IMG/VR virus record: IMGVR_UViG_3300045006_000378
Location: 1 to 22,292 of that record
Reading direction: 5' to 3' (one strand)
Length of the DNA: 22,292 nt
Source: a virus
This document shows, in pieces, positions 1-22,292 of the stretch. The notes under the pieces were generated by a model. That model was given only the letters and a program-made list of their open reading frames with translations, was not told the origin of the DNA and ran no database searches. Both the position numbers and the translations under genes were made by a program. Numbering within the stretch: position 1 is the first letter of the stretch; each line of letters begins with the position of its first letter.

Positions 1-939
1 GTACAGCATCGGCGTCAGATGCCATGTGCAACTCCCACCGGATACCCACACCCGGTAGACGTTGAAGTCGGCCTCCTTCATCGGCCGAATCGTCGGAAGG
101 TACGCATGCCACCGGGCCCCGCCCTCCTTGACCTGTGCGAGCGTATCCTTCCGGGAAGTCGTTTCATGCTGCCCACGGCACTCCACAATGATGTGCGTCC
201 CGTCGAACTTCTCCGGGTCATAAAACGTCTCAAGCCGAACAGCAAGCAGCTCCTCCGACTCAGCCGTCCACCCTACCGTCTCGTTGAAGTACTGAACAAT
301 CGTTCCGACAGACAGAAAGTTGAACATCCTTCGCAGGTTGTACTCTTCTAACGTCATCACATGCAGAAAGGACGGGTATTGCATGTCCGGGTTGCCCGTA
401 GAGAAGTACAGCGTCAAAACGCCATCAATCCAATCCTGCCCACGAGCGAGCTGAACATCCTGAGTAATCGTGAAATGACACGGATCAGTCCGTCCCTCTG
501 GAGCCACATACCGCTTGAGCCACATCAGCCAGTTCTCAGGCATCGGCCCCGTGCACGCCCTCATCCACGATGTCCCATCGGCGGCAGCATCGTAGTACTC
601 GAAGCACGGTAAGGACGTCCGGCGGAATGTTGAGTACGTCGTCCGCCAATTCGTACCGGAGACCTGCCATGAATCAAGCAGGCTCTCCACTGTCAACCAC
701 ACACTAGCCTGCTGCAGATAAGAGGGCGTGATACACCCCAACTCCGGAAAGACGGCCAGGTGGTTCCGATACATCCGGACCGGGTCGTTCTCCGGTGTTG
801 GGTAGTCTTTGAACTCCTCTTCAACCCATCCCCGGGGGTCCATCGGAACGTCCAGTACGAGACCCGCACGCGTCGCGTACCCGTGCCGCCCAGCAGGCCA
901 AACACTTAGTCGTCCCAGTGATCGTTCGAGCGTCCCCAT
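1..939 (-). CDS. Virion/tail-region protein of unknown function, partial at left edge
   Basis: Reading the minus strand from an ATG at 939 gives 313 codons with no stop up to the window's first base, so the gene continues beyond the left edge. The ATG overlaps the stop of the 1062-aa tail gene (TAATG), implying coupled translation. The product begins MGTLERSLGRLSVWPAGRHG and is rich in Trp, Tyr and Phe: examples are RMYRNHLAVFPELG, WQVSGTNWRTTYSTFRR, GPMPENWLMWLKRYV and IVQYFNETVGWTAESEELL. There is no signal peptide or membrane segment. I recognise no family. Position suggests a tail-tip or host-recognition component, but the sequence does not prove it. Confidence 0.75.
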   Translation of the reverse strand, partial: MGTLERSLGRLSVWPAGRHGYATRAGLVLDVPMDPRGWVEEEFKDYPTPENDPVRMYRNHLAVFPELGCITPSYLQQASVWLTVESLLDSWQVSGTNWRTTYSTFRRTSLPCFEYYDAAADGTSWMRACTGPMPENWLMWLKRYVAPEGRTDPCHFTITQDVQLARGQDWIDGVLTLYFSTGNPDMQYPSFLHVMTLEEYNLRRMFNFLSVGTIVQYFNETVGWTAESEELLAVRLETFYDPEKFDGTHIIVECRGQHETTSRKDTLAQVKEGGARWHAYLPTIRPMKEADFNVYRVWVSGGSCTWHLTPMLY

Positions 940-3900
940 TAGGTCGGCCCCGCAACAAGATGGAAAGGCTTCACCCACGACTCCGCCCGCCACGTCTCGG
1001 TCCGGTCCCCAAACCCAATCACAACTAGGATCGCCCCATCCTTCTCCACGATGAGGCTAGACCACGCGGCCACCCCGGACGTATTGCGGACCATCTTCAG
1101 GTACGCCCCGTTGCCGAGAAGCTCCCGCTGCAGCTGCGCTCCCGAAGCAACGCCCACCCAAACAGCACCGTTGCCGTAACCACAGAAGGCGATCCGATCC
1201 ATTGTCGGATAGATTGCCCCCCGAATGAGCCCGTCACCCAGATTAGCCATTGGAACTATCCTCGACAGAACTTGCCCGGGACTGACAGCGATGTCCATCC
1301 GGTCGGCCGCTGGAGATGTAGCGCACACATACACAAGCCCCTGGGAGATGCACACACTACTGTATGTGTACCCCGGACCAAAGACAAGTCCGTGATAGGC
1401 CCAGTAAGCCTGATCGTCGGGCCGCGTATGTAACGTGATCCCTCGTGGCGTGTCAACGACCTGCCACGTACGTCCGGAGACCTTCTCGTACCACAACGCA
1501 GGGCGGCGCGCGGTAAACTCGAAATCCGTGGAGAAGGGCTGGTGAGCTTGAGAAGGAACCAGGATGCCCGTCGCTGAGTAACAGCAGGGGCCAGCGTTTA
1601 CGATGTCTAGGATCCCCGTGAGCTCTCCGCGCTTGACTGTGACGTCCGTTACATCTACGAAGAACCCGTCTGGATAGGATGTTTGTGGAGCGGCCTTGAT
1701 TAGCACAATGTCGCCGATCGCCATCTGGTTGGGGAGGGCAACGTCGATTGCCTCTGTGCCTCCTCGGACATTGACAGCTGTAACGGTCAAAGTCAAGTTG
1801 TCGGCAATGATGTCCGAGGCTGCGATGAACTTCAGCTGGACCGATCCGAGGGCGTACCCGAGGCGGGCCTCCGCGGACGTAATTGACTCCCCATCCGTGA
1901 AAGTGCCGTTGTTGACTTCTCCGAGCTGGAGGTGGAGCGCGACCCACCGAGGAATACCGAGCCCTTTCCAGTCCCAGATGAGGTAGGGGTCGCTCTCTTG
2001 ATACTCGGTTGGGGCGAAGCCTCCCGGGATCTCAACGTCCGCGTAGTTGCCTGCCGAAGACTGAACAATGACGGTATTGCGCCAATCGGCCCCTGAGGGA
2101 AGGGGAGGCGTGATCATGTATGCACGACAGTCCGTAGTTATTCCGAAGTCGGCGCACTGCACACAGTATCCTCGAGTGTAGCCCAACAATACTGCCTGCG
2201 GCCCTGCTACGGGTCCTCCACAGTAGGGGCATTCCCAGGTGTCGAATGTAAGTGCCGGTACGTACGTCTCTCCAGCAGCTTCGGCTTGGGCGCGGAGGCT
2301 TGGAGATTCCGACATATGGGCAAAGGGTTGTGGGTGCTCCCCATACTCAAGGAGGACGCGCTCTGGCTCTAAGAGGACGTCCTTTGTTAGGCTTTCAGGC
2401 TTGTACTTGAGAACAGGCCCCTCGTACTTGCCCCCGAGGCTGAGTGATAGACGGCTGCCGCAATGGCCGGCCTGATACCAGGGGGTCATCGGGGCAGCCC
2501 AGATTGGGAAGTTGTGATCTTCTTGTCCCCCAGCGTTGACCCCCGTATCCGTTCCGTCGGCGTCGTACAAGTCGTAGCTGATCGCTCCCGCTGGTGCCGG
2601 GTTAGTCCCCCAACTGCCGGGATCTCCGGTAGCGCGCCACATAGGGAAGGGCTCCGACCGAACGCCGTTTCCTTGAGAGCCGGGACCCAGCCAGTACTTC
2701 TCACCCGTCGCCGGATTCTGGAGGTACCCGAACTTATGAGAGATGGGGAGGTTGGTATGGGAGCCCGCGACTCCCCACCAGTTTGCGTTCTCCGTGACCA
2801 TCATACTCTCATATACGGTTCCGGCCCCAGCACGGACACTCAGGCGGGGATCCCAAAAGCTTACAGGCGTTCCGCCACTTACATCGAATGCGGCGCACCC
2901 ATACGTAGGATGGTAGGCGACTACGATGTCTGGGCCCGGGCCGATAGTCTCGAAATACCCGTCCGCATCTGCGGTACCCAGCTTGATCCACGTAGCGGGC
3001 GGGCCTCCCCCCGGAGCGGTGTACGTCCAGACCTCTGCGCCCGGACAAGGTTCGCCGTCGTACCTGTAAATCCAGCCCCAGAGGACCTTTCCTGGCGGCG
3101 TACTCGTCCAAGAGCTACCAAAGGCCACGGTCTCAGAAGCACCAGACTGGGAGAGAGTGACTGTCTGCTTCCTCAGGCCCTTGGTATGATCCGATGGGTG
3201 CCCAACAGATACGACGTACTTCCCAGGTGGGAGGTTCGTGACTGTGTATGAGCCGCCCGCGCCTAGGTCGTAGTAAGTCCCGCCTTCTTCCGGGATGGGG
3301 TATCTGGTTGTGCCCTCCCACTCCACAATACACCGAGCGTCTACCGGGCCCGTGACAGTCAGTTGACAAGATACAATGTCTAACACCGCTGCAGTACACG
3401 GGCGCAGCTCTATGAACTCTTGCCGATAGTACGCTCTCACCCGGCTGAGGCGCTGTGCCAGGTGCTCCTGCTGGTTGCCCAGACTACCGATCCCGCGGGG
3501 AAGGACGATATGATCCTCTGTCCGGCCATCCGGATACGAGGGGAGGACGAGGCCAACACCCCCAGTTGTGATGAAGCTCCCCAACTCGTTCGAGCCCCTC
3601 AGCGGGACGCCACCCGCAACGTGAAGATCATTGTACGGGTAGTCGGGCTGAAAGACTGCCTGGACTACTCCATGCGGCGTCTGGTAGTCAAGGACGAGGC
3701 TTACCCACGCTCCATCTCCAGCAGCGGCGCCTCCAACCTTTAGTGTCAGCGGGCCCCAGCGTTCGCCAACCCGCATCACGACCGCGTCTTGTTGAGCATA
3801 CCAGTACGCCTCGGCCCAACCACTGTCGGCGCCCTGAACCCACCGACCCCACCCAATTGGAGCCGGTAGGTCATCGAAGCAGAAGCAGTACAGGGCAGGG

Positions 3901-4127
3901 GAGGAACCGTCCTGGAGGACTAGCCCGTACCGGAGGTAGTCGTCATTGATAGGACCGACAGCATACTCTGTAGCTCCGTCTGCTGTGCACTGAAGGACCC
4001 GCAGGTAGAAGTCACTTCCACCGTACGTGATCATCCCCCGCCCGTCACTGTCCAGTAGGGAGGCCACGGACACGATCGTGCCCCGGCGATGGTTGAGGTA
4101 AATAGAATCGCCAACTGCGAGAGGCAT
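939..4127 (-). CDS. Large tail/virion protein with Ig-like and zinc-ribbon-like regions
   Basis: This 1062-aa protein follows the tape measure gene, where distal tail, hub or fibre proteins are encoded. The N-terminal ~220 residues are beta-rich. A carboxypeptidase-regulatory/SpaA-like beta-sandwich is visible (TYYDLGAGGSYTVTNLPPGKYVVSVGHPSD, interrupted by no gap, residues ~285-320) and a second one follows at ~350-420 (WGWIYRYDGEPCPGAEVW then DADGYFETIGPG). Cys633, Cys636, Cys655 and Cys658 form two CxxC pairs 18 residues apart (CPYC and CVQC), like a zinc ribbon. The last ~200 residues repeat short beta segments with aromatic and Gly residues, possibly a propeller. The ATG at 4127 has AGGGTG upstream; the stop overlaps the next ATG. 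It probably contacts the host surface. No catalytic motif is recognised. Confidence 0.75.
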   Translation of the reverse strand: MPLAVGDSIYLNHRRGTIVSVASLLDSDGRGMITYGGSDFYLRVLQCTADGATEYAVGPINDDYLRYGLVLQDGSSPALYCFCFDDLPAPIGWGRWVQGADSGWAEAYWYAQQDAVVMRVGERWGPLTLKVGGAAAGDGAWVSLVLDYQTPHGVVQAVFQPDYPYNDLHVAGGVPLRGSNELGSFITTGGVGLVLPSYPDGRTEDHIVLPRGIGSLGNQQEHLAQRLSRVRAYYRQEFIELRPCTAAVLDIVSCQLTVTGPVDARCIVEWEGTTRYPIPEEGGTYYDLGAGGSYTVTNLPPGKYVVSVGHPSDHTKGLRKQTVTLSQSGASETVAFGSSWTSTPPGKVLWGWIYRYDGEPCPGAEVWTYTAPGGGPPATWIKLGTADADGYFETIGPGPDIVVAYHPTYGCAAFDVSGGTPVSFWDPRLSVRAGAGTVYESMMVTENANWWGVAGSHTNLPISHKFGYLQNPATGEKYWLGPGSQGNGVRSEPFPMWRATGDPGSWGTNPAPAGAISYDLYDADGTDTGVNAGGQEDHNFPIWAAPMTPWYQAGHCGSRLSLSLGGKYEGPVLKYKPESLTKDVLLEPERVLLEYGEHPQPFAHMSESPSLRAQAEAAGETYVPALTFDTWECPYCGGPVAGPQAVLLGYTRGYCVQCADFGITTDCRAYMITPPLPSGADWRNTVIVQSSAGNYADVEIPGGFAPTEYQESDPYLIWDWKGLGIPRWVALHLQLGEVNNGTFTDGESITSAEARLGYALGSVQLKFIAASDIIADNLTLTVTAVNVRGGTEAIDVALPNQMAIGDIVLIKAAPQTSYPDGFFVDVTDVTVKRGELTGILDIVNAGPCCYSATGILVPSQAHQPFSTDFEFTARRPALWYEKVSGRTWQVVDTPRGITLHTRPDDQAYWAYHGLVFGPGYTYSSVCISQGLVYVCATSPAADRMDIAVSPGQVLSRIVPMANLGDGLIRGAIYPTMDRIAFCGYGNGAVWVGVASGAQLQRELLGNGAYLKMVRNTSGVAAWSSLIVEKDGAILVVIGFGDRTETWRAESWVKPFHLVAGPT

Positions 4128-11085: not shown

Positions 11086-11994
11086 CTACGCGTCGGTGAC
11101 GAGCTTCACGCCGGCCTCGTCGGTGACGACGCCAGTGCCCCAGTAGCCCGTCATCTTGAGCTTCCAGGCGTACGTGTCATCGTCCCACGTAACGGCCAGT
11201 CCAAAGTCCTTGAGCCAGTTGAGCCCGAAGGCCTCCGGATTGAACATCGAACCGCAACGATCGGCGCCGGCGTTCGCGGTCTGCACATCGTTCGTGATGT
11301 ACCAGACCATGCCGTAGATGTCGTCGTAGAAGTAGTTCCCGTAGAAGCCCTCCGCCATGTTCGTCTTCGAGGCGTCCACGAGCGGCGAGTTCGCCTCTGT
11401 CATGAGATCGTACCACTGCTGTGAGTGCAACACCACGTAGTGAGGCCCGTACGCGTTCGCGACCTCCAACGTGTTCCGGGCGGCGAGGATGTTCGCATTC
11501 GTGATGTTGACCCCCGTAGAGCCCACTGTGGTAGACAACGACGCGAACGTGGCACATACATCGACGTTGATCTTCGTCGCCATCGCAGCCGCGAGCTCTT
11601 CCCCAGCCTTCACCCACAACTGCAGCTGGTTCGCGGCCGCCTTCCGAGCCTCCCACGTGATCTGCGTCCCGACCTCCTTCTTGATCCCGGTGATGTCGGA
11701 GGTCGCGGGGTCGAGGTCCTGCCAACCGGCGTACTCGACACCCTCCTCTCCATCTGAAGCGGTCAGGGTATTGAACCGCCCGAAGGTCGCCGTCAACCCC
11801 GGAACGTCTCGGAGATCGGCGATCTGGATCACCTGAGGGGAGTGGCCGGGGTCGCCAGGAGCGAAGATCGTCCGGGCCCTCAAGCCAAGAACCGCCACCT
11901 GGAGCGCGGTGTCGACGTACTCCGCGACCAGCGTCGAGTCCGTGATGCGCAGAAGCAACGCGATCACAACACAGACCATCAACAGTGTGCCCAT
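11086..11994 (-). CDS. Major capsid protein
   Basis: This 302-aa protein builds the icosahedral shell. Its place after the scaffold, its length and its sequence (GITGIKKEVGT-like E-loop region around residues 105-115, ARKAAANQLQLWVKAGEELAAAMATKIN spine-like helix, YGPHYVVLHSQQWYDLM, and a beta-rich C-terminal domain ending in TDEAGVKLV) fit an HK97-fold coat protein, nearest in feel to the P22 coat/N4 gp56-type group. A perfect GGAGG six bases before the ATG at 11994 fixes the start, which places a hydrophobic stretch (residues 3-15, TLLMVCVVIALLL) at the N-terminus; that is unusual for this family. No in-frame downstream start has a comparable binding site. The fold is inferred; the coat role is strongly indicated by context. 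Confidence 0.85.
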   Translation of the reverse strand: MGTLLMVCVVIALLLRITDSTLVAEYVDTALQVAVLGLRARTIFAPGDPGHSPQVIQIADLRDVPGLTATFGRFNTLTASDGEEGVEYAGWQDLDPATSDITGIKKEVGTQITWEARKAAANQLQLWVKAGEELAAAMATKINVDVCATFASLSTTVGSTGVNITNANILAARNTLEVANAYGPHYVVLHSQQWYDLMTEANSPLVDASKTNMAEGFYGNYFYDDIYGMVWYITNDVQTANAGADRCGSMFNPEAFGLNWLKDFGLAVTWDDDTYAWKLKMTGYWGTGVVTDEAGVKLVTDA

Positions 11995-12006: not shown

Positions 12007-12861
12007 TTACGGCGGTGTCTTCCGGGAGATCCCGGGCGGCGTTGTGAGCCGGACGCCCTTCTTTGCGAGTGCTGCTTGCAACTCCTCCAAGCTCGTCGCC
12101 TCCGCAATGCCATCCGTTGTGACTGTGACTCCTCCAGGAGCGCCGCGACGGACGTTCCCACCAGCGCCAACAGGCTGAACACCCGTCCTGAGCCTTCCCA
12201 CCACCGCTTTCGCCTGATCCCCGTACTTCGCTTCTAACTGTTCCGCCGACAAGGTCTGCAGATCCGTGAAGACGTCTGCGACGGTGTCCGCCTGTGCAGC
12301 CGCCTGTGCATCCCGGGCGACGTCGATACTAGCCAGGACCTCCACCTCAGTCGCACCTGTGACCATCGCCGCGTAGGCAGGACTGAGATCCCGTCCAGCT
12401 ATCTGCAGCGTATTCAGCCGCGTGATCTCAGCTCGGGCCAGAGCCAACTCACGCCGGTTCGCCGCACTCTCACTGCTCGGCCGGCCTCCACTACCCTCTC
12501 CCGCAGCACTCCCACCAGCGCTCGGGCTGGTGTTACTGAGTTGTCTGCGCGCTTCCTCCACAACGGCCAGTGCCTCGTCCCGCTCTTCCTCAGCTGTAGT
12601 CTTCGCCCGGCCAGCGGCCTCTAGTGAGGCCGCGTGCGCGCGCTGTTCCCGCTGAAGCCGCTCCTTGATCGCCCGATCTAAGTCAGTCTGTGTGAACTTC
12701 TTCTCGTCCGCCGCCCCACCATCGCCCTCACCTACCCCAGCCGCACCGTCCCCCGCGCCACCCCCACCACCCCCATCAGTACCGTCGGCGCCCTCTCCTC
12801 CGTCTGGGGCTGCAGCGAGGCTAAGCGCGACGAGAACACAGAGACCGAGAAGCCAGAACAT
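12007..12861 (-). CDS. Capsid scaffolding protein with signal-like N-terminus
   Basis: This 284-aa protein lies directly upstream of the major capsid gene, as scaffolds do, and carries the scaffold-type segment FTQTDLDRAIKERLQREQ (residues ~56-73) followed by a long charged, Ala-rich coiled coil (~70-110), a Ser/Gly linker, a second helical region (~135-220) and a C-terminal LEELQAALAKKGVRL. It would template procapsid assembly and then leave or be degraded. Odd features are residues 1-18, a hydrophobic stretch MFWLLGLCVLVALSLAAA resembling a secretion signal, and a Gly/Asp/Ala low-complexity run at ~20-50. The ATG at 12861 is preceded by GGGGGG six to eight bases away. The internal ATG near 12777 is out of frame, so the hydrophobic start is hard to avoid. 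The function call rests on position and coiled-coil character. Confidence 0.8.
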   Translation of the reverse strand: MFWLLGLCVLVALSLAAAPDGGEGADGTDGGGGGGAGDGAAGVGEGDGGAADEKKFTQTDLDRAIKERLQREQRAHAASLEAAGRAKTTAEEERDEALAVVEEARRQLSNTSPSAGGSAAGEGSGGRPSSESAANRRELALARAEITRLNTLQIAGRDLSPAYAAMVTGATEVEVLASIDVARDAQAAAQADTVADVFTDLQTLSAEQLEAKYGDQAKAVVGRLRTGVQPVGAGGNVRRGAPGGVTVTTDGIAEATSLEELQAALAKKGVRLTTPPGISRKTPP

Positions 12862-12873
12862 GAGCGTATCCCC

Positions 12874-12946
12874 CCGTTTATACCGCCCGTCGGCGTAGTA
12901 AACATCTACAACCCGCTTTTACCGCCCGTCGGCGTAGTGAACAGCT
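12874..12946. repeat. Two direct repeats, 39-base period, before the scaffold gene
   Basis: A 19-base core, TACCGCCCGTCGGCGTAGT on the plus strand, occurs at 12881-12899 and again identically at 12920-12938, with further similarity on both sides (about 12874-12907 against 12913-12946). Each core contains CGCC-GACG-GGCG, a short inverted repeat. The pair lies in the non-coding gap immediately upstream of the scaffold start, so tandem operator or activator sites, or paired RNA hairpins in the leader, are possible. I saw no other exact copy in the window. The 317-base interval 12862-13178 holds only this repeat, the -10-like patch and the 41-aa frame. Confidence 0.8.
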
Positions 12947-13070
12947 AGACATGCGCACTTACAGCAGCAGAAGCCGCAGCGAGCTCGGCCTTGAAGAAGT
13001 CGTAGGTCGGGACCCGCCCGAGCTGAGATATTGCTTGAATGAGGCTGTCGTAGCTCGCAAAGCCACCCAT
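12945..13070 (-). CDS. Possible small ORF, 41 aa
   Basis: This short frame starts MGGFASYDSLIQAISQLG and ends in an alanine-rich tail AAASAAVSAHV. AGAGG lies about eight bases before the ATG at 13070. The frame also continues upstream to a GTG at 13145 (66 aa), but that start has no ribosome binding site and would contain the AT-rich promoter-like patch. The sequence looks like one amphipathic helix plus a tail. It fills the junction between the giant minor capsid gene and the scaffold gene. It could be a real small capsid-associated protein or a chance frame in a regulatory region; I cannot decide from sequence alone. Confidence 0.4.
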   Translation of the reverse strand: MGGFASYDSLIQAISQLGRVPTYDFFKAELAAASAAVSAHV

Positions 13071-13116
13071 CGGGGCTGCCTCTGACGCCAGGACCTGCGC
13101 TCTACACCTTACACCT

Positions 13117-13125
13117 AGTATAATA
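13117..13125 (-). promoter_or_regulatory. AT-rich -10-like element upstream of the scaffold-capsid genes
   Basis: An isolated AT-rich patch in otherwise GC-rich sequence reads TATTATACT on the minus strand, containing overlapping TATTAT and TATACT hexamers. It follows the giant gene's stop and precedes the high-expression scaffold and capsid genes, where an extra promoter would make sense. No good -35 hexamer lies at 16-18 bases, so support is from the -10 and the context only. The same bases give TATAAT on the plus strand, but no plus-strand gene would use it. Confidence 0.3.
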
Positions 13126-13178
13126 CAAAGCGAGCCACAAGGCACGCCCGATTTTTACTCTGCCTCCAAGGTTCTTTC

Positions 13179-16100
13179 TTACCCACCGAAGAGCTGCTGC
13201 CGGAAGAAGTGCGTCAGGGCCTCAACGGTCCGTGCGGGGACCCAGGCGGGCAGTGGAGACGGGGTGCCGTTGCGAGCGACGGTCTGCAGCACTTGCTCGA
13301 GGGCCCCAGGTGAGCCGTTACCGCGAAGCATCAGATTCAGAGCTGTAGACTGGGGGCCGGTCCGAAGAGGAGCAGCCTGCAATGCCCGACACAGCTCCCA
13401 ATTGAGGACAGCGTGCAGCATCTCTTGTTGGTGAACAGGCGACATCTCTACAAACCCCGCATCCGTAAGCAGCTTAGCGATCTGCTGCCGCACAGCAGGA
13501 TCTAGAGGCCGCTGTAACGACTGCAAGGCGGCGGTCCGGCGCTGAACGACCTCGCTCAAGACTTCAGCAGCAACCCTAGCAACAGCTACAGGCACTTTGC
13601 CATGAACGGCCGTCCAGTAAGCCTGAAAGGCGGCCTGCACCAAGACCCCAGGATCCCGAATGCCGGCCTCCTGCAGCTGCTGCGCAACGGCTTCAACCTC
13701 CACCTGAGCCGGCAGGACGCACGGTTGACCTGTCTGAGCCTCCCACAACTGCATCCACAAGTCCTTGAGCATCCCAGCGACCGTCACGCTATCCCCTGGG
13801 GAGTCGATAGCGCCCAACGTTGCGAAGAGCGATGTCAGGGGTAGCTGCACGGCCGCCTCCCCTAACGCATCGGTCGGGACTAGAACCTGCTGGACGGCCG
13901 CACCAGCAACCTCGTCCGAGATCGGGACCTGCGGCCCCGACAGTAGGAGGTCCTGCGCAAGCTGCGCAAGTCCCTCTAATGGTGTTGTGCCGGCCACCGG
14001 AACTACTGTGTCCTCAACCTCCCGCCCCCGAATAGCTGTGACGGCAGCCTGCTCCAGGGCGTGCAAAACGCGCTGCCTCGTAGGCTCATCGGCGGTTACT
14101 ATCTGCGAGATGCGCTGAGCATCCAGCCCCTCCCGGAATACCACCCCACCTAGATCCGTCTCCCCCCACTGCAACGCCCGCAGAGCCTCTGGGAGGCCGA
14201 AGGGCAGACCTTGGATGTCCGTGCGGGAAAGCACCTCCCGCTCCCAAAGCAGCCGAACACTCTTTGGCGGCTTCTGCGTGCCAGTGTCGACTCCGAGAGG
14301 GGTGTTTGGTGCCACAGGGCGCCCAGATACGACCTCTACCAGACCTTCTACATCGGTATCTAGCCATACTCCCCCAACCGGAGCAGGCAGCTCGGACTGC
14401 ATTGTGGGGTCGGTCCACACACCCCCCACTGGAGTAACCTCTACCCACACCATCGCGTCTAGCGACTGCTTCAGCTTTTCAACCTCCTCTTGTGGCAGAG
14501 CCGCTACAACCTCCTCAAGGGTAGAGAACTGTTGCTGATACGCCCCAACGAGCCCGCTTAGGAGGCGCCGGCTCATCTCAGGCTCCCCATCAGCGACAGC
14601 ATCATTCAGGACTGCCCGGAAGATGTCGCTAAACGCCCGCCTCTCCCACGCATTCCGGGGCAACTGCTGCAACTGTTGCAGGGTCCACTCGTAATCCCAA
14701 ACAGGATCGCCCTGAAACTCGAGGGCTCCTGGGCGAGACACCTCGATCTGGTACCGCGTGACCTCCTCCTCAGGAATGATCCGACCAGTCTGCGCGTCAA
14801 AGTAGGTGTACGTCGTCTGCCCTGTAGCGTCGGTCTGGCCGATTCGCCACACTTTTTCCGGCTCGGCTACCGCTTCGAAGGCGGCCTCTTCTGCTGGACG
14901 CCACCGCGCTTGACGAACGAAAGACATCAACGGGCGGTGCGGCTCATCGTATGCAGCTACGTTGATCGGTGCGTCGTGCCCCGGCAGGGGGGTGAAGCGG
15001 CTGCCCCGCACAGTCGCGAAGAGCGTCCGTGTAGGCTGCGCAATCTGAAGCCCTCCCTCACGCCTCACATCTTCAAGATACTGCTGCAAAGCGCGCTGCA
15101 CCCTAGGTGAGGGCGCCCCGACAGTCACCGTCGTCGGCATCTCAATCTGCTGCGGCACTGTAGCAACAACACGCGTCTCTCCCTCAGCATTCTTGATCCG
15201 CTGCGTCCGCAGAACCGTTCGAATGGTAGGACGCTCGATCGGTGCCGTCAATGGAACGTCCGGCCGCGTCAATCGGTACAATGCGTCCTGCAGCGGTTGT
15301 AAGATATATCGTCTAACTACAGGATCTCGGCGGAGTACGTCGAAATGGGCTGTGCGGACCGCCTGCCGCCTCAAAACATCTCCGATCACCCTCTCTGAGA
15401 CTGTATACGTCAGATCTCTCTGAGTGTGTTGGTGGTACACCTTCTTGACCAGGTTTCCGAAGGCTCCCACCATGTCTGCATCTGAAGGAATGTGGGGCGC
15501 ACCATACATTACGGCGTTATACGCTTGTGGATGGCGAACACCTAACCACGCCTGCGTCTTTGCCTCGGTTACGGTCTGTGGTGTCTGCGCGACCAGATGT
15601 GAGAAGTTCAGTTCCTGTAACGCGCCGGCAACAACGTTCTGCACTGTACTTGCCGGCGTCCCAGCAACAGCCCGGACCTGTATTTCCAGCAGTCCGTCTA
15701 ACTCAGGATGCATCGTCGGCTCGTACTCGAGAACCTGCGTTGCCGGAGCGCGCGGCGTGACTTTCGCCACCTCTCTCGGAGGTTTCGGTAGAAGAACACG
15801 CAACGCCGGCGTACTCGCAACCTCACTGCGGTCTACAAGGCGAAAGTCAACCCACTCTACACCTGGGACGTTCTCCGGAACAATTCGCGCCCACCAGCAG
15901 TTCGGCGGGTTCCGCATTTCCTGCGGCCGGTCCGTAGCAAGCACTCGAACGCCCCCGACGTCCTCAAAGCGTAACGGGAAATACTGCCGACGGCGACCGT
16001 GGGCAGCAGCTAGCTGGATCGCTGCGTCTACGTAGGCTTGTCCACCAAGATGTGTCTGTAGGACTGTGTGCTCTCGACCCAAAGCTACCCGAGCCGTCAA

Positions 16101-18995
16101 CGGAACTGAGGGCATCACGCGCCACCCCTGATCCAGAACGCCCTGCCCCCCACCGGGAAGCAGACGCGACCCAATCGCCTCCCACGGTTGAGTCATAATA
16201 CCAGGCTGGCCCAGATGTACCCACTGACGTGCCGCATCTCGGAGCGAGACCGGAGTCTCGACACCCTCAAGGTCGAGCAGCACTGTCTCTGCGGCATGCC
16301 CGACAACCGTCCCAACACGTCCCGTGGCCGCCTCGCGCAAGATATCGCCAGCTGCTGGAAAACGGCGACCGGCACCGAGATAGGCCCACAGCCGAAGATC
16401 GTTCTTCGCACGAAGCTTCGCCAGATCCTCAGTCGCAACCTCCTGCAGAACAGCACGGAACTCGTCGAGCGTCGGCGCCTTCCTGAGGTACTGCAGAATG
16501 TAGGGCGTCTCCTTTTTGAGAAGGACTTCCCACATCTCAGGGTCAGCTGCCGCCTCCGCTACCTTCTTCCCCGACTTTGAGAGGATCTTGAGGAGAATCT
16601 TCGGTACAGGCGGCGCAGCGGCTCTCGTTCCTGCCGAAGCCTCCCATGCCTTCTTGACAGCGGCAACCTCTCTCCACAACTCCTCCGCATTCTTCACTCC
16701 CACCTTCCACCGGGCTGCCGCTGCGACGACGTCAAACGGCTTGTCGGGCTCGACTCCGAGCAGGTTCCAGATTACAGCCTTTGCGGACTCAAGGACTGCC
16801 CGCGAAGGCGGCATACCCCCCACGTACGCCCGCGCTAGGGGCTCAATCTCGTCCCAACCAAAGACAAAGTGATACATCCGCCTCACAGGCTCGGGGAGGC
16901 CCTTCAACGCGCGTCCGAGCGCCCGCTGAATCTCTGCAGACACTTCTGGTGTCCAGACCTCCGTACGGAGGTGGAACAGGGCCCGTTGGGCCTGGACCGA
17001 GATATCATGAAAGGCAACTACGTGCCGACGCGCGAGATCGAGAACCTTCGCAGGATCGACAAAGTTGTCCGCCGTAACGGCCGTATCGTACCCCAGAACG
17101 TGCAAGGCGGCCCGCGTAGCCTCGTACGCCCTTGGCGCCCTCCACGCAAGAACGTTCATCGGCACAGACGTACCGGCAGTAACCGCCGGCAGTAGCAACG
17201 GTGTACCGGTCAATGCGGCCCTCGTCAGCATCTCCAGCTCATCAAACCCGAACGCGTAACGCCAGACCGTCCCAACCCAGGGCGGCGCCTTGTCCACAAT
17301 ATCATCGAGAGCCCGACGCGCCCAGGAAGCTTCGCTGGCGGTCCACTCGCCCCGCTGGAGCCGCTGGTACAGATCCTCGAGGTTTGAAATCGTCGTTTTT
17401 CGGAAGACACCCTGTTTCCGTAGAACGTCTCGTAACATCCCATAGGCTTCCGTTGGTGGCGCTGCCACCGCCGTACCGCCACCCTCGAAATGAACGAGAG
17501 CCCGTCTTGCCGCTTCTCGCTCCCCCAACAAGAGATCGTCCCGTCCCAAGTACGCGCGGAGTTGCGCAGCCGCCCACGAGCGGTCCTCAGCCGTCCCAGC
17601 GCCAGCCGCGATTCGCTCCAAGGTCAGTTCGGCCTCTTTCCGCGGAAGGCCGAATTCTGTTACCTTACGTTCGATCCAAGCGGCGGGGTCGAACGTTGGG
17701 GGACGACCAAGCGGCGACGTATCCCAGATGCTGTATACCTCAGACGGCGCGAGACGCGTTCGGCGGACACGTAAGTGACCCCGGCGAATGTCGCGATAGT
17801 ACCGCGACCCCGGCTCGGTTACCCACTTCATGATACGCGCTTCCGGCCCAGACAACAGGAGGTTCCAGTGCGCCCCAGCTGAAATCGGGCGCCGTGAACG
17901 CAGTGCACCCGCGAGAACCTCGCCGAGCCACTTCTTCCCCTGGTCCCGCGCAATGTCCTCAGCCTTTTTGAAAACCGAATCCAACACCCGCTCTTCGACA
18001 GCAGCCCCCAAAGAGTCGACGAGCATATCGCCAACGCCGTCTGTCTTGAGGTACGCATCAAGCGAAGCCCCCAAGTACCGTTCGAGCCCAACAACGGACG
18101 CGTGCAGCCCTTCATCCGCTGCCCAGTGTACCCACGCACCGATCGGTTCATAAACAAACTTCCGCAGGACCTTCGTCTTCAGCGCTACCCACACAGTCTG
18201 CCTCGGACGCCCGCGGCGGCGCCCAATCCGCTCTTCCGGTGGAGAAGGAAGGATGGTTGGGGATTCGACGTGTTTACAGTGTGGGTGCCCGTATCCTGTG
18301 TTGCGAGCCTCAGCTAGCGTGGGATAGCCGGGCGTCGCGCCCGTGAGACTGACTGTTCGTCCCTGCCAGGGGGCGCAGTACTGACAGGATCCGATGTGCT
18401 TAGAGATGGTGACGAGGTCGTAGCCGGCTTCAAGCGTGCGCTCGTACATCCCTGCCGTGACTGCGTCGCGCACGGCGACGTTTGCTAGGGTGTCGTTGTA
18501 TGTATCGTAGGACCACTGATTGCCGCCCTTATCAACGAGGGCGATCAGACGGCCGCGTTGTAGTTGCTGCTGCACCTTGCTAAGCGGCGCTGTGCGCAGA
18601 CGTTGTTGAACAACGTCAAGGGCGCGTGTGTGACGGATCAGGAACTGTTGCTGGACGTTTCCGAGAGCTGCTGCATGTGACGGCATCTTATAGACGTCGA
18701 TGCCTCCAGCCTCGTTATGGCGATGTACGCGGTTCCGCGCTCCGGAGGGAAGAGCCTTATCGGCCAAGGACATTCCGTGGCGGTACGCTTCGAGGAGAAC
18801 GGAGTCGGACCACCCGCGGGCGCGGGCGTCGAGCGCCTGAAGATGAGGCGTGGCGAGGTTCGCAGTTGCTAGCCGATCGGCCTGCCAGGTCTCTTCGGGG
18901 ACGCGCTGCAGCAGCTCAGCCATCCGCCGCGTTTGGCCCTTTGCTAGAGCGGTGTAGGTATCGCGGGGTTCGACGAGCTGCTCCGCGTGATCCAT
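13179..18995 (-). CDS. Giant minor capsid (MuF/Phage_min_cap2-like) fusion protein, 1938 aa
   Basis: Residues ~1-250 form a recognisable minor capsid domain: WSYDTYNDTLANVAVRD, then a conserved core VTISKHIGSCQYCAPWQG (Cys204, Cys207) and GYPTLAEARNTGYGHPHCKH, the Cys/His set shared by MuF-type head proteins, probably binding zinc. Family proteins are usually 250-500 aa, so ~1690 residues are extra. That extension has no motif I recognise: it is mostly helical-looking, with internal repeats around residues 459-730, a beta-looking middle (~1000-1100), a duplicated PVGGVW near 1521-1543, and a Gln/Ala/Val-rich helical C-terminus ending FFRQQLFGG. No signal peptide or clear membrane segment. I chose the ATG at 18995, overlapping the previous TAA with GGAAG upstream; a GTG at 19007 is also possible. 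It likely sits inside the capsid near the portal, and the extension may be packaged and ejected with the DNA; that is inference. No frameshift or stop breaks the frame. Confidence 0.88.
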   Translation of the reverse strand: MDHAEQLVEPRDTYTALAKGQTRRMAELLQRVPEETWQADRLATANLATPHLQALDARARGWSDSVLLEAYRHGMSLADKALPSGARNRVHRHNEAGGIDVYKMPSHAAALGNVQQQFLIRHTRALDVVQQRLRTAPLSKVQQQLQRGRLIALVDKGGNQWSYDTYNDTLANVAVRDAVTAGMYERTLEAGYDLVTISKHIGSCQYCAPWQGRTVSLTGATPGYPTLAEARNTGYGHPHCKHVESPTILPSPPEERIGRRRGRPRQTVWVALKTKVLRKFVYEPIGAWVHWAADEGLHASVVGLERYLGASLDAYLKTDGVGDMLVDSLGAAVEERVLDSVFKKAEDIARDQGKKWLGEVLAGALRSRRPISAGAHWNLLLSGPEARIMKWVTEPGSRYYRDIRRGHLRVRRTRLAPSEVYSIWDTSPLGRPPTFDPAAWIERKVTEFGLPRKEAELTLERIAAGAGTAEDRSWAAAQLRAYLGRDDLLLGEREAARRALVHFEGGGTAVAAPPTEAYGMLRDVLRKQGVFRKTTISNLEDLYQRLQRGEWTASEASWARRALDDIVDKAPPWVGTVWRYAFGFDELEMLTRAALTGTPLLLPAVTAGTSVPMNVLAWRAPRAYEATRAALHVLGYDTAVTADNFVDPAKVLDLARRHVVAFHDISVQAQRALFHLRTEVWTPEVSAEIQRALGRALKGLPEPVRRMYHFVFGWDEIEPLARAYVGGMPPSRAVLESAKAVIWNLLGVEPDKPFDVVAAAARWKVGVKNAEELWREVAAVKKAWEASAGTRAAAPPVPKILLKILSKSGKKVAEAAADPEMWEVLLKKETPYILQYLRKAPTLDEFRAVLQEVATEDLAKLRAKNDLRLWAYLGAGRRFPAAGDILREAATGRVGTVVGHAAETVLLDLEGVETPVSLRDAARQWVHLGQPGIMTQPWEAIGSRLLPGGGQGVLDQGWRVMPSVPLTARVALGREHTVLQTHLGGQAYVDAAIQLAAAHGRRRQYFPLRFEDVGGVRVLATDRPQEMRNPPNCWWARIVPENVPGVEWVDFRLVDRSEVASTPALRVLLPKPPREVAKVTPRAPATQVLEYEPTMHPELDGLLEIQVRAVAGTPASTVQNVVAGALQELNFSHLVAQTPQTVTEAKTQAWLGVRHPQAYNAVMYGAPHIPSDADMVGAFGNLVKKVYHQHTQRDLTYTVSERVIGDVLRRQAVRTAHFDVLRRDPVVRRYILQPLQDALYRLTRPDVPLTAPIERPTIRTVLRTQRIKNAEGETRVVATVPQQIEMPTTVTVGAPSPRVQRALQQYLEDVRREGGLQIAQPTRTLFATVRGSRFTPLPGHDAPINVAAYDEPHRPLMSFVRQARWRPAEEAAFEAVAEPEKVWRIGQTDATGQTTYTYFDAQTGRIIPEEEVTRYQIEVSRPGALEFQGDPVWDYEWTLQQLQQLPRNAWERRAFSDIFRAVLNDAVADGEPEMSRRLLSGLVGAYQQQFSTLEEVVAALPQEEVEKLKQSLDAMVWVEVTPVGGVWTDPTMQSELPAPVGGVWLDTDVEGLVEVVSGRPVAPNTPLGVDTGTQKPPKSVRLLWEREVLSRTDIQGLPFGLPEALRALQWGETDLGGVVFREGLDAQRISQIVTADEPTRQRVLHALEQAAVTAIRGREVEDTVVPVAGTTPLEGLAQLAQDLLLSGPQVPISDEVAGAAVQQVLVPTDALGEAAVQLPLTSLFATLGAIDSPGDSVTVAGMLKDLWMQLWEAQTGQPCVLPAQVEVEAVAQQLQEAGIRDPGVLVQAAFQAYWTAVHGKVPVAVARVAAEVLSEVVQRRTAALQSLQRPLDPAVRQQIAKLLTDAGFVEMSPVHQQEMLHAVLNWELCRALQAAPLRTGPQSTALNLMLRGNGSPGALEQVLQTVARNGTPSPLPAWVPARTVEALTHFFRQQLFGG

Positions 18996-19651
18996 TACGG
19001 CTTCCACTTCAATTTGAGGCTTGGGGCGCGGGTGACGACCTTATGAGGTGTGTTGGCCATCGCCGCTCGTACGTCTGCCGCCGACCGAATGCGGCGGTAA
19101 GTGCCCCGATCCCCAACAGTCCGGCCGACCGCAATGTTGCGTGGCAGAGCCTTGAGATTCCGGAGGCCGCTGGGCGCCTCCCGGGCGATGGTTGGTGCAA
19201 GACGGCCCGCACCCCGAAAGAGGTGGAGGCCTGTGCCTACTCCACCGATAGCGGAGCCGGCGGTTCTAGCCAGGTTACGCATCTCCTCCCGCTTCGTCAG
19301 CTTCTTCCCTTTCTTGGGCCGGATCTGTCCACCAACACGCTCTCCCGCAACGGCAGCTCCCAGCCCCACAGCGAGGGATGCCGGCCGGAGGCCCTTAGCG
19401 GCCCCCTTGACTCCCGCCACCGCCCAGCCCTCTACAGCTCCCATAACTGATGGGGCCATGAGGCTCATCCCCGCGAGGCCGAGTGCGCCGCCAGCAGCAC
19501 CGAGAGCGACATCCTTCCCGTAAGTCTTGAGGAACTGTCTCAGGGGCCCCCGCTTCCTGCGGCCCTTTCCGGCCCGCCCTTGCCCTTGCCCTCGTCCACC
19601 CTTATGTGTTGCGAACCACCACCGACGCTGACGTGCGGTTTTGAGCGCCAT
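18995..19651 (-). CDS. Basic Gly/Ala-rich protein between portal and minor capsid protein
   Basis: This 218-aa protein starts MALKTARQRRWWF, resembling the short K..RQRR opening seen in small phage proteins near portal and MuF genes (recalled, not searched). The first ~45 residues are very rich in Arg, Lys and Gly. Residues ~50-110 are Gly/Ala-rich and hydrophobic (ALGAAGGALGLAGMSLM and a second stretch SLAVGLGAAVAG), able to form membrane-active or tightly packed helices. A basic linker RPKKGKKLTKREE and more Arg-rich sequence follow. The ATG at 19651 has GGAG eight bases upstream and starts just past the portal TGA; a GTG at 19660 is the alternative. The stop overlaps the next ATG (TAATG). 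The composition would suit an internal DNA-binding or ejected virion protein, but that is inference; function unknown. Confidence 0.75.
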   Translation of the reverse strand: MALKTARQRRWWFATHKGGRGQGQGRAGKGRRKRGPLRQFLKTYGKDVALGAAGGALGLAGMSLMAPSVMGAVEGWAVAGVKGAAKGLRPASLAVGLGAAVAGERVGGQIRPKKGKKLTKREEMRNLARTAGSAIGGVGTGLHLFRGAGRLAPTIAREAPSGLRNLKALPRNIAVGRTVGDRGTYRRIRSAADVRAAMANTPHKVVTRAPSLKLKWKP

Positions 19652-19656
19652 TGTGA

Positions 19657-21300
19657 TCACTCCTGCCCAGTTACAGGGCTACTCCAAGACGTCCCTTGAC
19701 CCTGTCCGCCGAAGGTTGAGCCGCCAGGTCCGAACATCTCGCTACCCGCGGGCGCCGCGCCTGGCATGACCTCGGGGACTTGGGTATCGGCGTCGATCTC
19801 GTTGAGGAGGGCCTGCGCCTCAGCCTCAGTGACACCATCAAGCTGTATAATGGCTTGCAGGCGGCTCTGAATGCGGGCGCTGAGACGCTGCGTCTGCTCT
19901 TGGATGTCCTCCATCTCGTTGCGTGGAAGGCCGTCGTTGAATGTGATGCGCAGGTCTGCAGGCTCGAGGGCTGTGACCGAGCCGCTGTTCAACGGCGGCT
20001 GCCACGAAAGAACCGTTGTCGGCCGGACAGCGACCTTGAGGACCGCGCTGTACAGGTCCTGTAGCGTCTTCTTCCACAAGAGTTGGCGGATGTTGACGGT
20101 GACTTGGGTCTTCAGCTGCCGTAGGCGGAGGGCGAAGCCGCTCATGGGGCCGGACAGTGTTGGCTGCAGAAGGGCCTCGCTGTCGATGTTGAATCCGATG
20201 GTGAACTTCTCAGTGTTCTCGCGCAGCGCTTCGACAACCGCGGCTAGCTCCGCGTCCCAGGTGAGGATCCCGAGGGGCGGTGCAGCCGGAGCGCCTGCGG
20301 GTACGTCCACCGCGAGGTACTTGTGCCGACCTACACTGACAGAGCCGTCATCTTCCTTCTCCAGCTCGGGCCCGTACATGAACGGCTCGACGAACTCGTC
20401 TAAGACGGCTCCCCGCTGAGTTTCGCGCCAGTTGATCTGGCCCTGGAGGGCAAGGACGTTCGTGTAGTCGTCGTAGCCGTAGATGTCTTCGTCATCCTCG
20501 GTGTAGAAGTTCTTGTGGTGAATGATTGGGATGATGTCGATCCCCAGCTCCGTCATCGGAGGGAGAGCGGCCGTTGCCTCAAGGGCATCGAGGGGGAGGG
20601 ACTTCTCTGGGTCGTACGTCCCCGTCTTCGGGTTCTCCTTGTCCTCCTCGAGCTTGAACAGCTGGTGGTACAGCCTACAGGTGTACTGTGTTGGCTGGGC
20701 TGGTGGGGGAGCGAGAACGGGCGAGGCCCCCTCTACTTCGGCTGGAGTCGTTACAGCTTCCAGGACGTAGCGCTGCCTCCAGATGTGTGCGTCGACGCCG
20801 CTGCCGTCGATGTCATATGACCGGTACAGTACGTTGTCGATGTTGACTGCCGTTCGGCGGGTCGTGTCTAGTGGGTCGGTCTCGACAAAGTAGGTCGCAG
20901 GGTTGAGGAGGTCAACGATCACCCGGCGAGCGTCTGCGTCGTAGCGGACCTTGAAGACCGCATCGCCCGCATACGAAGACTGGATCGCAGCCCGGAGATG
21001 CTTGAAGTGGCACCCGTTGTCTTCGATGAAGTAGGCGAGGTAGGCGAGTGTGGCAGGGGACGCGCTCGGGGCCGCAAGCTCGACCGGCTCTCCGAAGAGG
21101 CGGCTGGCGATGAGGTTCGTCGCCGCTTGACACAGGTTCGCTGTGAGGTACTCGCTATCCACCGGCGCGACGTACGAGAAGTCCTCAGGAACAAGGAAGA
21201 CGTCCTTGTGTTCGCCTCGCCAAATGTGTCGGTGGCACGTGTACCGCTTGAGGCGGGCCTGATCGTCCTTCGATGGGTAGGGAATTCCCTCATCGGCCAT
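19657..21300 (-). CDS. Portal protein, SPP1 gp6-like
   Basis: The portal forms the twelve-subunit ring at the capsid vertex through which DNA enters and leaves and to which the neck attaches. At 547 aa it has the usual length. Recognisable stretches are the N-terminal clamp region (ANLCQAATNLIASRLFGEP), a beta-rich wing with NPATYFVETDPLD, the middle segment NVLALQGQINWRETQRGAVLDEF, typical of SPP1-like portals, and the stem/crown region SGPMSGFALRLRQLKT. The last ~35 residues are Gly/Ser/Pro-rich. I prefer the ATG at 21300 because GAGGTG lies four bases before it; an ATG at 21312 overlaps the previous stop, and a longer open frame to 21441 has a poor N-terminus that overlaps the upstream gene. 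Position after terminase and before a minor capsid protein agrees with the call. Confidence 0.9.
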   Translation of the reverse strand: MADEGIPYPSKDDQARLKRYTCHRHIWRGEHKDVFLVPEDFSYVAPVDSEYLTANLCQAATNLIASRLFGEPVELAAPSASPATLAYLAYFIEDNGCHFKHLRAAIQSSYAGDAVFKVRYDADARRVIVDLLNPATYFVETDPLDTTRRTAVNIDNVLYRSYDIDGSGVDAHIWRQRYVLEAVTTPAEVEGASPVLAPPPAQPTQYTCRLYHQLFKLEEDKENPKTGTYDPEKSLPLDALEATAALPPMTELGIDIIPIIHHKNFYTEDDEDIYGYDDYTNVLALQGQINWRETQRGAVLDEFVEPFMYGPELEKEDDGSVSVGRHKYLAVDVPAGAPAAPPLGILTWDAELAAVVEALRENTEKFTIGFNIDSEALLQPTLSGPMSGFALRLRQLKTQVTVNIRQLLWKKTLQDLYSAVLKVAVRPTTVLSWQPPLNSGSVTALEPADLRITFNDGLPRNEMEDIQEQTQRLSARIQSRLQAIIQLDGVTEAEAQALLNEIDADTQVPEVMPGAAPAGSEMFGPGGSTFGGQGQGTSWSSPVTGQE

Positions 21301-21308
21301 AACGCACC

Positions 21309-21542
21309 TCATCTGAAGAGACGGCGGATGAACTCGATAGCTGTTCGGACAGTGTTTCCGATGTACCACGCCCAGAAGAGGTTCGGTTGGATTGCAAGCG
21401 CGCGCCCCTCTGGCAGGTTGAGGGCGACAATCCGAACCCACTGACCGTTGACCTGAACAGGCCGAGCAGTTCGAAAGGCCCGAATGACGCCGTTACGGCG
21501 GCCTGGTGTGGCGTTCTTGAGGTCGAGAGTCATTGATCGCAT
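21309..21542 (-). CDS. Hypothetical 77-aa protein between terminase and portal
   Basis: This small basic protein (77 aa from the ATG at 21542; a second ATG lies three codons on) is not one I recognise. A GGAAG sequence sits four bases before the first ATG, which decides the start weakly. The N-terminal half looks like a small beta domain with arginines; the C-terminal end has a hydrophobic aromatic patch (LFWAWYIGNTV) followed by a basic amphipathic segment IRRLFR, which could be a membrane-associated or protein-contact helix. Its stop overlaps an ATG in an ATGA arrangement at the head of the portal gene, so it is part of the packaging/head operon. Coding is inferred from tight packing between two certain genes and the lack of any alternative frame. 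Function unknown. Confidence 0.65.
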   Translation of the reverse strand: MRSMTLDLKNATPGRRNGVIRAFRTARPVQVNGQWVRIVALNLPEGRALAIQPNLFWAWYIGNTVRTAIEFIRRLFR

Positions 21543-21562: not shown

Positions 21563-22292
21563 CTAGGCGGCCCTTCGGCCCGTGCGTTTGGGCGGGCCAG
21601 ATGTGCGACGGACACGGACAGTCGGCGTTGGCGGCGCAAACGCGAGGACGAGGGCGTCTAGCTCGTCTGGAGACGGGATGCCCCGCTCTTTCATCGCTTC
21701 CTTCGACTCGACCTTGATCTGGTTCTTCTCGTTGTAACCGTACTGTACGCTGGAGGCCTGTGCCTGCAGGCGTGTGCGCAGGACTGTGTCGTCAATCGCG
21801 ATGCAGATGTTCATCTCGTCGCTGTCTGGCCGGAACAGCTCTCGGAGGTAGTAGTACGCCTCATCCCGCCGGCGAACGAAGTGGTCCCGATCGATCGCCG
21901 CCCCCCCGAATGTGTACCGGCGAAATGTCTTGACATCATGCGCACAGAGGATGTCGCCTACACCCGCACCGACGCCGGTTGTGTCGATGTTCATGAACAA
22001 TCCGCTATGATCTATATTATATTGATCACAAAGCGCGCGGAGGTCCCTTACCGCCTCGATCGCGTACGCCGCCAACAGGCGGGTATCTTGCTCGCCGATC
22101 CACGACCGCATCATCACATGAACAGGGCCGATCCTTCCGGCAATGGCGGTGCGGTCCGATCCAAAGTGGGCCACGTCGAACCCCAGCTGGACGGCAGGGC
22201 GCTTGCCCAGCTGGGACTCAACGCGGTTCGCGGCGTAGGTGAACCAGTGCTGGGGTACGAGGATGACGCTGCTATCCTGCTCGGGGAAGCGC
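21563..22292 (-). CDS. terL: Terminase large subunit, C-terminal nuclease part (partial at right edge)
   Basis: This is the last ~242 residues of the DNA-packaging motor protein; the ATPase half lies outside the window. The frame is open to the window edge, starting in a segment RFPEQDSSVIL, so the GTG at 22174 is an internal valine and not a start. The RNase H-like nuclease signature of terminases is visible: a first acidic strand QLGFDVAHFGSDRT (Asp at 22175-22177), a second NIDTTGVGAGVGD (Asp at 21983-21985), and a third SPDELDALVLAF near the C-terminus, giving the usual metal-binding aspartates. The protein would cut concatemeric phage DNA and pump it through the portal encoded two genes downstream. 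The C-terminal tail after the last motif is short and basic. The family call is secure from motifs and position; the packaging mode (cos, pac or other) cannot be told from this part. Confidence 0.93.
   Translation of the reverse strand, partial: RFPEQDSSVILVPQHWFTYAANRVESQLGKRPAVQLGFDVAHFGSDRTAIAGRIGPVHVMMRSWIGEQDTRLLAAYAIEAVRDLRALCDQYNIDHSGLFMNIDTTGVGAGVGDILCAHDVKTFRRYTFGGAAIDRDHFVRRRDEAYYYLRELFRPDSDEMNICIAIDDTVLRTRLQAQASSVQYGYNEKNQIKVESKEAMKERGIPSPDELDALVLAFAPPTPTVRVRRTSGPPKRTGRRAA

What the first reader, a model, noticed from the sequence alone, without database searches (positions are those of the whole stretch)
13179..18995. Minor capsid protein fused to an unrecognised ~1690-residue extension
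The first ~250 residues are a MuF/Phage_min_cap2-type domain with the Cys/His set (Cys204, Cys207, HPHCKH). Such proteins are normally a few hundred residues; here one unbroken frame of 1938 residues follows. MuF proteins are known to carry C-terminal toxin or effector domains, and giant polyvalent phage proteins travel with DNA into the host. The extension could be an internal virion protein ejected at infection, but it shows no familiar catalytic motif.
Basis: partly seen in the sequence, partly recalled or inferred. Interest (0 to 1): 0.75.

Follow-up and report, generated by a model that had tools for sequence, protein, structure and literature searches.

The report
Giant phage minor capsid (MuF) protein
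A phage head protein of a common type carries an unusually long, mostly unrecognisable tail (about 1,690 residues) that is probably cargo injected into the bacterium with the phage DNA and that faintly resembles ADP-ribosylating enzymes; long tails on this protein are known, but none of those compared here is nearly as long.

Summary
One frame on the MINUS strand (ATG 18995 to stop 13179) encodes 1,938 residues. Residues ~144-250 are a Phage_min_cap2/MuF domain (E 2.6e-14) with its Cys/His set, in the standard place terL-portal-[221 aa]-MuF-scaffold-MCP. Among 138 complete relatives the median open frame is 382 aa and the longest 1,022; none has a matching extension. New here: aa 515-770 is a tandem duplication (~130-aa period), and this stretch plus aa 802-842 weakly but reproducibly resembles ADP-ribosyltransferases (ART) found at the C-termini of other phages' MuF proteins: best of 141 families by profile comparison. 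PF03496 itself is not matched and the active-site motif is incomplete. The remaining ~1,340 residues (aa 260-514 and 860-1942) match nothing. Structure prediction without homologues was uninformative. Most likely: a portal-tethered head cargo protein whose extension is delivered with the DNA and holds diverged, perhaps inactive, ART modules. New variant of a known kind.

The parts
13179..18995 (-). MuF minor capsid gene with giant extension, 1,938 aa from ATG 18995 (1,942 aa if GTG 19007)
18258..18578 (-). Phage_min_cap2/MuF domain, aa 144-250 (GTG numbering); CQYC at 18375-18386 and HPHCKH at 18270-18287
17463..18230 (-). basic unassigned region aa 260-515 (pI 10.0)
17088..17465 (-). repeat copy A, aa 515-640, ART N-half-like; R583 and GTS (612-614) at the positions of the ART Arg and STS
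16698..17075 (-). repeat copy B, aa 645-770, ART N-half-like; His at the Arg position (MYHFV), no STS
16482..16604 (-). ART C-half-like stretch aa 802-842 (PKILLKILSKSGKKV..EMWEVLLKKET); one Glu of the ExE motif aligned, the other replaced by Met
13182..16430 (-). unassigned region aa 860-1942; last ~560 aa acidic (pI 4.6)
18995..19660 (-). 221-aa very basic protein (pI 12.0) with a hydrophobic stretch, stop overlapping the giant gene's ATG (TAATG)
19657..21441 (-). portal protein (SPP1_portal E 7.5e-12)
21563..22292 (-). terminase large subunit, C-terminal part (runs off the window)
12007..12861 (-). scaffolding protein
11086..11994 (-). major capsid protein
12862..13178 (-). gap after the giant gene: 41-aa ATG ORF (12945-13070) and two 39-bp repeat units (12873-12947)

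Best explanation
It is a MuF-type minor capsid protein carrying a very long C-terminal cargo. Shown here: the MuF domain, its place just after the portal region, one continuous coding frame, an internal tandem duplication at aa 515-770, and weak ART-like similarity over aa ~515-860. Inferred from SPP1 gp7 and MuF toxins: the MuF part binds the portal during procapsid assembly, so a few copies of the ~214 kDa protein are packed in the head, and the whole protein or a cleaved extension leaves with the DNA at infection. Inferred: the extension acts in or on the newly infected cell as a multi-domain effector or counter-defence protein. Its ART-like modules are diverged and may be inactive NAD/target-binding folds, or one active ART assembled from copy A (Arg, S/T) and the aa 802-842 segment (Glu).
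For: MuF domain. Gene order terL-portal-MuF-scaffold-MCP. Coding throughout. Relatives' MuF proteins carry effector domains at the C-terminus: Ntox50, DUF3626 and a PI3/4-kinase-like match; ART and weaker PBECR3 and LPD1 matches; ART and Gln_amidase; a 1,129-aa phage ZQG1 MuF protein ends in an ART. Repeat A/B: Smith-Waterman 84-90 against a shuffled maximum of 66, phmmer c-E about 5e-8. Repeat HMM finds the ART of MuF protein L122, E 6e-4 in 20,353 ORFs. ART C-half at aa 802-842 in the right order. HHalign: ART first of 141 families for all three queries with both ART alignments; 0-1 of 150 column shuffles as good in seven of eight tests. Portal-dependent packaging of SPP1 gp7 in few copies and proposed delivery of MuF toxins (PMC6316719, PMC5576092).
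Against: No virion or delivery data. PF03496 does not match the window and HHalign probabilities are low (0.6-34%). With a larger ART set (19 members) the hmmsearch score fell to 4.6 bits, and the best of 1,000 shuffles scored 10.6. Copy A alone against that set: 11 of 150 shuffles as good. Catalytic residues are incomplete. AF2 models have pLDDT 38 and 37. About 1,340 residues of the extension are unassigned.
Confidence: 0.55

Rival explanations
1. A structural or pilot protein: the extension is a large, helix-rich internal head or ejection protein (shaping DNA ejection or forming part of a conduit) with no enzymatic effector role.
For: Helix-rich in the low-confidence models; no catalytic family in any library; mixed basic and acidic blocks; a very basic, partly hydrophobic neighbour whose stop overlaps its start; SPP1 gp7 itself is proposed to control ejection (PMC4493119).
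Against: ART-like signal at aa 515-860; extensions on relatives are mostly effector domains where recognisable.
Confidence: 0.25
2. A MuF polymorphic toxin of the Jamet et al. kind, with an unknown toxin at the extreme C-terminus and a small immunity gene just downstream.
For: C-terminal extension on a MuF2 (PF06152) protein; a small ORF (41-66 aa) lies in the gap after the gene; small ORFs under 150 aa follow 89% of MuF toxin genes (PMC5576092).
Against: No toxin domain at the C-terminus; the small ORF has no known family and its translation is unknown; extensions of relatives that carry toxins are much shorter; temperate lifestyle not shown.
Confidence: 0.12
3. A polyprotein: cleaved during head maturation so that virions keep the ~250-aa MuF part and the rest is released or serves separately. 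(This can also be true together with the best explanation.)
For: Sharp difference in charge between blocks; a >4,400-aa actinophage protein is thought to be processed and virion associated (PMC7302621).
Against: No protease gene was recognised among the window proteins scanned, and the fragment is incomplete.
Confidence: 0.15
4. Assembly or sequencing artefact joining two genes in frame.
For: Single virus record from IMG/VR with no close relative to confirm the junction.
Against: The gene's own frame scores best in all 19 windows with no break; normal gene order on both sides and a TAATG overlap upstream.
Confidence: 0.04

Closest known systems
MuF / Phage_min_cap2 minor capsid proteins (PF06152; SPP1 gp7-like)
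   Same: MuF domain with Cys/His set, gene downstream of the portal gene and before scaffold and capsid
   Different: ~1,690-residue extension; relatives median 382 aa, maximum 1,022 of 138
MuF polymorphic toxins (Jamet et al. 2017, PMC5576092)
   Same: MuF domain plus long C-terminal extension, possible small ORF downstream
   Different: extension far longer; no recognised toxin domain; no recognised immunity gene
MuF-VIP2 ADP-ribosyltransferase fusions of Microbacterium and Arthrobacter phages; Pseudomonas phage ZQG1 minor head protein (1,129 aa, ART at C-terminus)
   Same: minor head protein fused to an ART; the window protein has weak ART-like stretches
   Different: here the ART-like region is internal, duplicated, diverged and followed by ~1,080 further residues; no sequence match of the extension to ZQG1
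Phage polyvalent proteins (Iyer et al. 2017, PMC5512222)
   Same: very large head-module protein with several blocks next to portal and terminase
   Different: no domain of that catalogue recognised at library thresholds apart from MuF

Membership tests
Phage_min_cap2 / MuF2 (PF06152) | profile match above the curated cut-off | tested here: met
   53.4 bits against a cut-off of 26.3
Phage_min_cap2 / MuF2 (PF06152) | conserved Cys/His set and G-Y motif columns | tested here: met
   C211, C244, H246, G162, Y170 invariant in a 9-sequence alignment
Phage_min_cap2 / MuF2 (PF06152) | gene between portal and scaffold/capsid | tested here: met
   one extra 221-aa gene lies between portal and MuF
Phage_min_cap2 / MuF2 (PF06152) | protein present in the virion, bound to the portal | not testable with these tools
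   needs virion proteomics
MuF polymorphic toxin | C-terminal extension of at least 100 aa | tested here: met
   ~1,690 aa
MuF polymorphic toxin | known toxin domain in the extension | tested here: not met
   none in Pfam, PHROGs, NCBIfam or PADLOC; only a sub-threshold ART-like signal
MuF polymorphic toxin | small immunity ORF downstream | tested here: inconclusive
   41-66 aa ORF in the gap, function and translation unknown
ADP-ribosyltransferase (PF03496) | profile match at family cut-off | tested here: not met
   no match in the window up to E 10
ADP-ribosyltransferase (PF03496) | R - STS - ExE active-site residues | tested here: inconclusive
   copy A keeps R583 and GTS 612-614, copy B has His and no STS, C-half has one of the two Glu
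ADP-ribosyltransferase (PF03496) | remote profile similarity beyond controls | tested here: met
   best of 141 families for three queries; shuffles 0-1 of 150 in seven of eight tests, 11 of 150 in the eighth
Phage polyvalent protein | two or more recognised effector or invasion domains in one polypeptide | tested here: inconclusive
   MuF plus a weak ART-like region only
Phage polyvalent protein | encoded in a portal-terminase head module | tested here: met

The most novel reading that the evidence does not exclude
The extension is a previously undescribed multi-domain injected protein in which an ADP-ribosyltransferase module was duplicated and remodelled (a pseudo-ART, or an ART whose active site is split over copy A and the later C-half), followed by ~1,080 residues of new domains, making it the longest MuF-tethered cargo among those compared here.
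Probability: 0.25. Interest if true: 0.65.

Novelty: new variant of a known kind. Interest (0 to 1): 0.42.

Why it matters
MuF proteins address cargo to the inside of phage heads. A 214 kDa example would show how large a protein a portal-associated carrier can bring into a virion, and perhaps through a tail, and offers ~1,340 residues of unclassified sequence in which new anti-host or counter-defence domains may be found. If the ART-like region is confirmed, it is a case of an effector domain duplicated and diverged inside a virion protein.

Tried and rejected
Library searches of the whole extension and of ten overlapping pieces: only sub-threshold matches (RHS_repeat, EccE, SufE, PepSY and the like), taken as chance. 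PDB sequence search: nothing. tblastn of the extension in phages (E up to 10) and plasmids (E up to 1): nothing. Scans of viral contigs with the whole protein, two extension pieces, the repeat pair, portal and capsid: no relatives; with the MuF alignment A2 many relatives, none sharing the extension. Genome contigs with the whole protein: none. These scans need exact or near-exact peptide stretches, so distant relatives can be missed. Six-frame searches of the extension or whole protein in 16 chosen genomes/records and in four group samples: only the MuF part was found, apart from one chance-level match at E 0.02. The alignment A1 of nine MuF proteins was too diverse to scan with. AlphaFold without homologues: pLDDT 38 and 37, so no fold search was run on it. 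A third copy of the repeat: none above noise. Homology of the extension to the 1,129-aa ZQG1 and 1,022-aa L109 MuF proteins: none. HExxH metallopeptidase motif: absent. Structured RNA: no Rfam match; gap fold z +0.9.

Full report
OBSERVATION. The window is a 22,292-base linear virus record. On the minus strand an uninterrupted frame runs from GTG 19007 or ATG 18995 to a TAA ending at 13179. The ATG overlaps the stop codon of the preceding ORF as TAATG, so 1,938 residues is the likelier product; residue numbers below follow the 1,942-residue version (subtract 4 for ATG numbering). Codon usage learned from six neighbouring genes favours this frame over the five others in every 100-codon window, so the frame looks like a gene along its whole length. 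Pfam's Phage_min_cap2 matches residues 144-250 (E 2.6e-14) and PHROG minor-head families match the same part.

CONTEXT. All genes assigned here lie on the minus strand in the usual head-module order: terminase large subunit (partial), portal, a 221-residue very basic protein, the MuF gene, scaffold, major capsid protein, and further on a tape-measure protein. The MuF gene is followed by a 317-base gap before the scaffold gene.

HOW UNUSUAL. An alignment of four MuF domains brought 80 loci from viral contigs and 61 from genome contigs. With the phage records fetched earlier, 138 relatives have a complete open frame: median 382 residues (stop to stop), 20 above 600, maximum 1,022. Family searches of PF06152 in two phylum samples gave open frames up to 804 residues for matches over the cut-off. 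A Pseudomonas phage minor head protein of the related PF04233 type has 1,129 residues. The window protein is thus nearly twice as long as the longest PF06152 relative seen here. None of these shares the extension, nor was it found in the other collections searched.

WHAT IS IN THE EXTENSION. Residues 515-640 and 645-770 are a tandem duplication, 23% identical over 126 residues, with Smith-Waterman scores of 84-90 against a maximum of 66 in 4,000 shuffled pairs and phmmer conditional E of about 5e-8. A two-sequence profile of the repeat found one other protein above the inclusion threshold among 20,353 locus ORFs: the MuF protein of L122, E 6e-4 for the whole protein and 0.003 for the best stretch, in its C-terminal part. 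That part is an ADP-ribosyltransferase exoenzyme domain (PF03496, E 2e-7; phmmer E 7.5e-4 to a PDB chain named PAAR repeat-containing protein, 6dre). The match covers the ART N-terminal half, including the position of the catalytic Arg. A profile of twelve phage ART domains, tested on the window protein, matched residues 550-605 faintly and residues 802-842 with 7.2 bits, the latter being the ART C-terminal half, in the expected order; the protein total of 10.0 bits exceeded all 200 shuffles (best 2.0). With 19 more diverse ARTs the score fell to 4.6 bits and one of 1,000 shuffles exceeded it, with 10.6 bits. Profile-profile comparison with column shuffles gave 0 or 1 of 150 as good in seven of eight tests and 11 of 150 in the eighth. 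Against 140 control families built from ORFs of the same loci, ART ranked first for all three queries. Against this, PF03496 itself does not match and HHalign probabilities stay between 0.6 and 34%. The active site is incomplete: copy A keeps an Arg and GTS in place of STS, copy B has His and no STS, and the C-half aligns one Glu of ExE. I take this as a likely but unproven ART-derived region, probably remodelled or inactive.

Residues 260-514 and 860-1942 have no match. The block charges differ strongly: pI 10.0 for 260-515, 10.2 for 1110-1380, 4.6 for 1380-1942.

MECHANISM. For SPP1 gp7 the literature reports portal binding, targeting to the procapsid interior in few copies, and a role at the start of infection; it states that MuF toxins probably exploit this route and were proposed to be delivered to the host (PMC6316719; PMC5576092). 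MuF-VIP2 ART fusions are described in Microbacterium phages, with the role unclear (PMC7302621), and MuF fused to effector domains is part of the polyvalent-protein concept (PMC5512222). Recognisable extensions on relatives fetched here are mostly effector-like. By analogy the window protein is most likely packaged through its MuF part and its extension delivered with the DNA. Packaging, delivery and activity are inferred, not shown.

VERDICT. A real and unusually large member of the MuF minor capsid family with a largely new extension; a new variant of a known kind.

Noticed in passing
window 12873-12947 (-): Two 39-bp repeat units between the giant gene and the scaffold gene, each with ACTACGCCGACGGGCGGTA, exact twice and nowhere else in the window; possible binding or regulatory site.
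   Followed up: partly
window 12945-13070 (-): 41-aa ATG ORF (66 aa from GTG 13145) in the same gap; could be a small protein or immunity-like gene.
   Followed up: partly
window 18995-19660 (-): 221-aa protein, pI 12.0 (45 Lys/Arg, 8 Asp/Glu) with a hydrophobic glycine/alanine-rich stretch, between portal and MuF, no family.
   Followed up: partly
window 939-4127 (-): 1,062-aa ORF next to the tape-measure gene with no PHROG or PADLOC match.
   Followed up: no
window 12007-12861 and 11086-11994 (-): Scaffold and capsid ORFs both begin with a leader-like hydrophobic stretch; start codons may be misplaced.
   Followed up: no
L113 5248-7404 (+): MuF protein from a Flavonifractor contig carries an intein splicing domain (PF14890, E 3e-10) after the MuF domain.
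   Followed up: no
L015, L122, L128, L132, L134, L141, L202: MuF proteins with C-terminal Ntox50, ART, Gln_amidase, DUF6883, DUF6883, ART and ART respectively: a sample of the effector repertoire on this carrier.
   Followed up: partly
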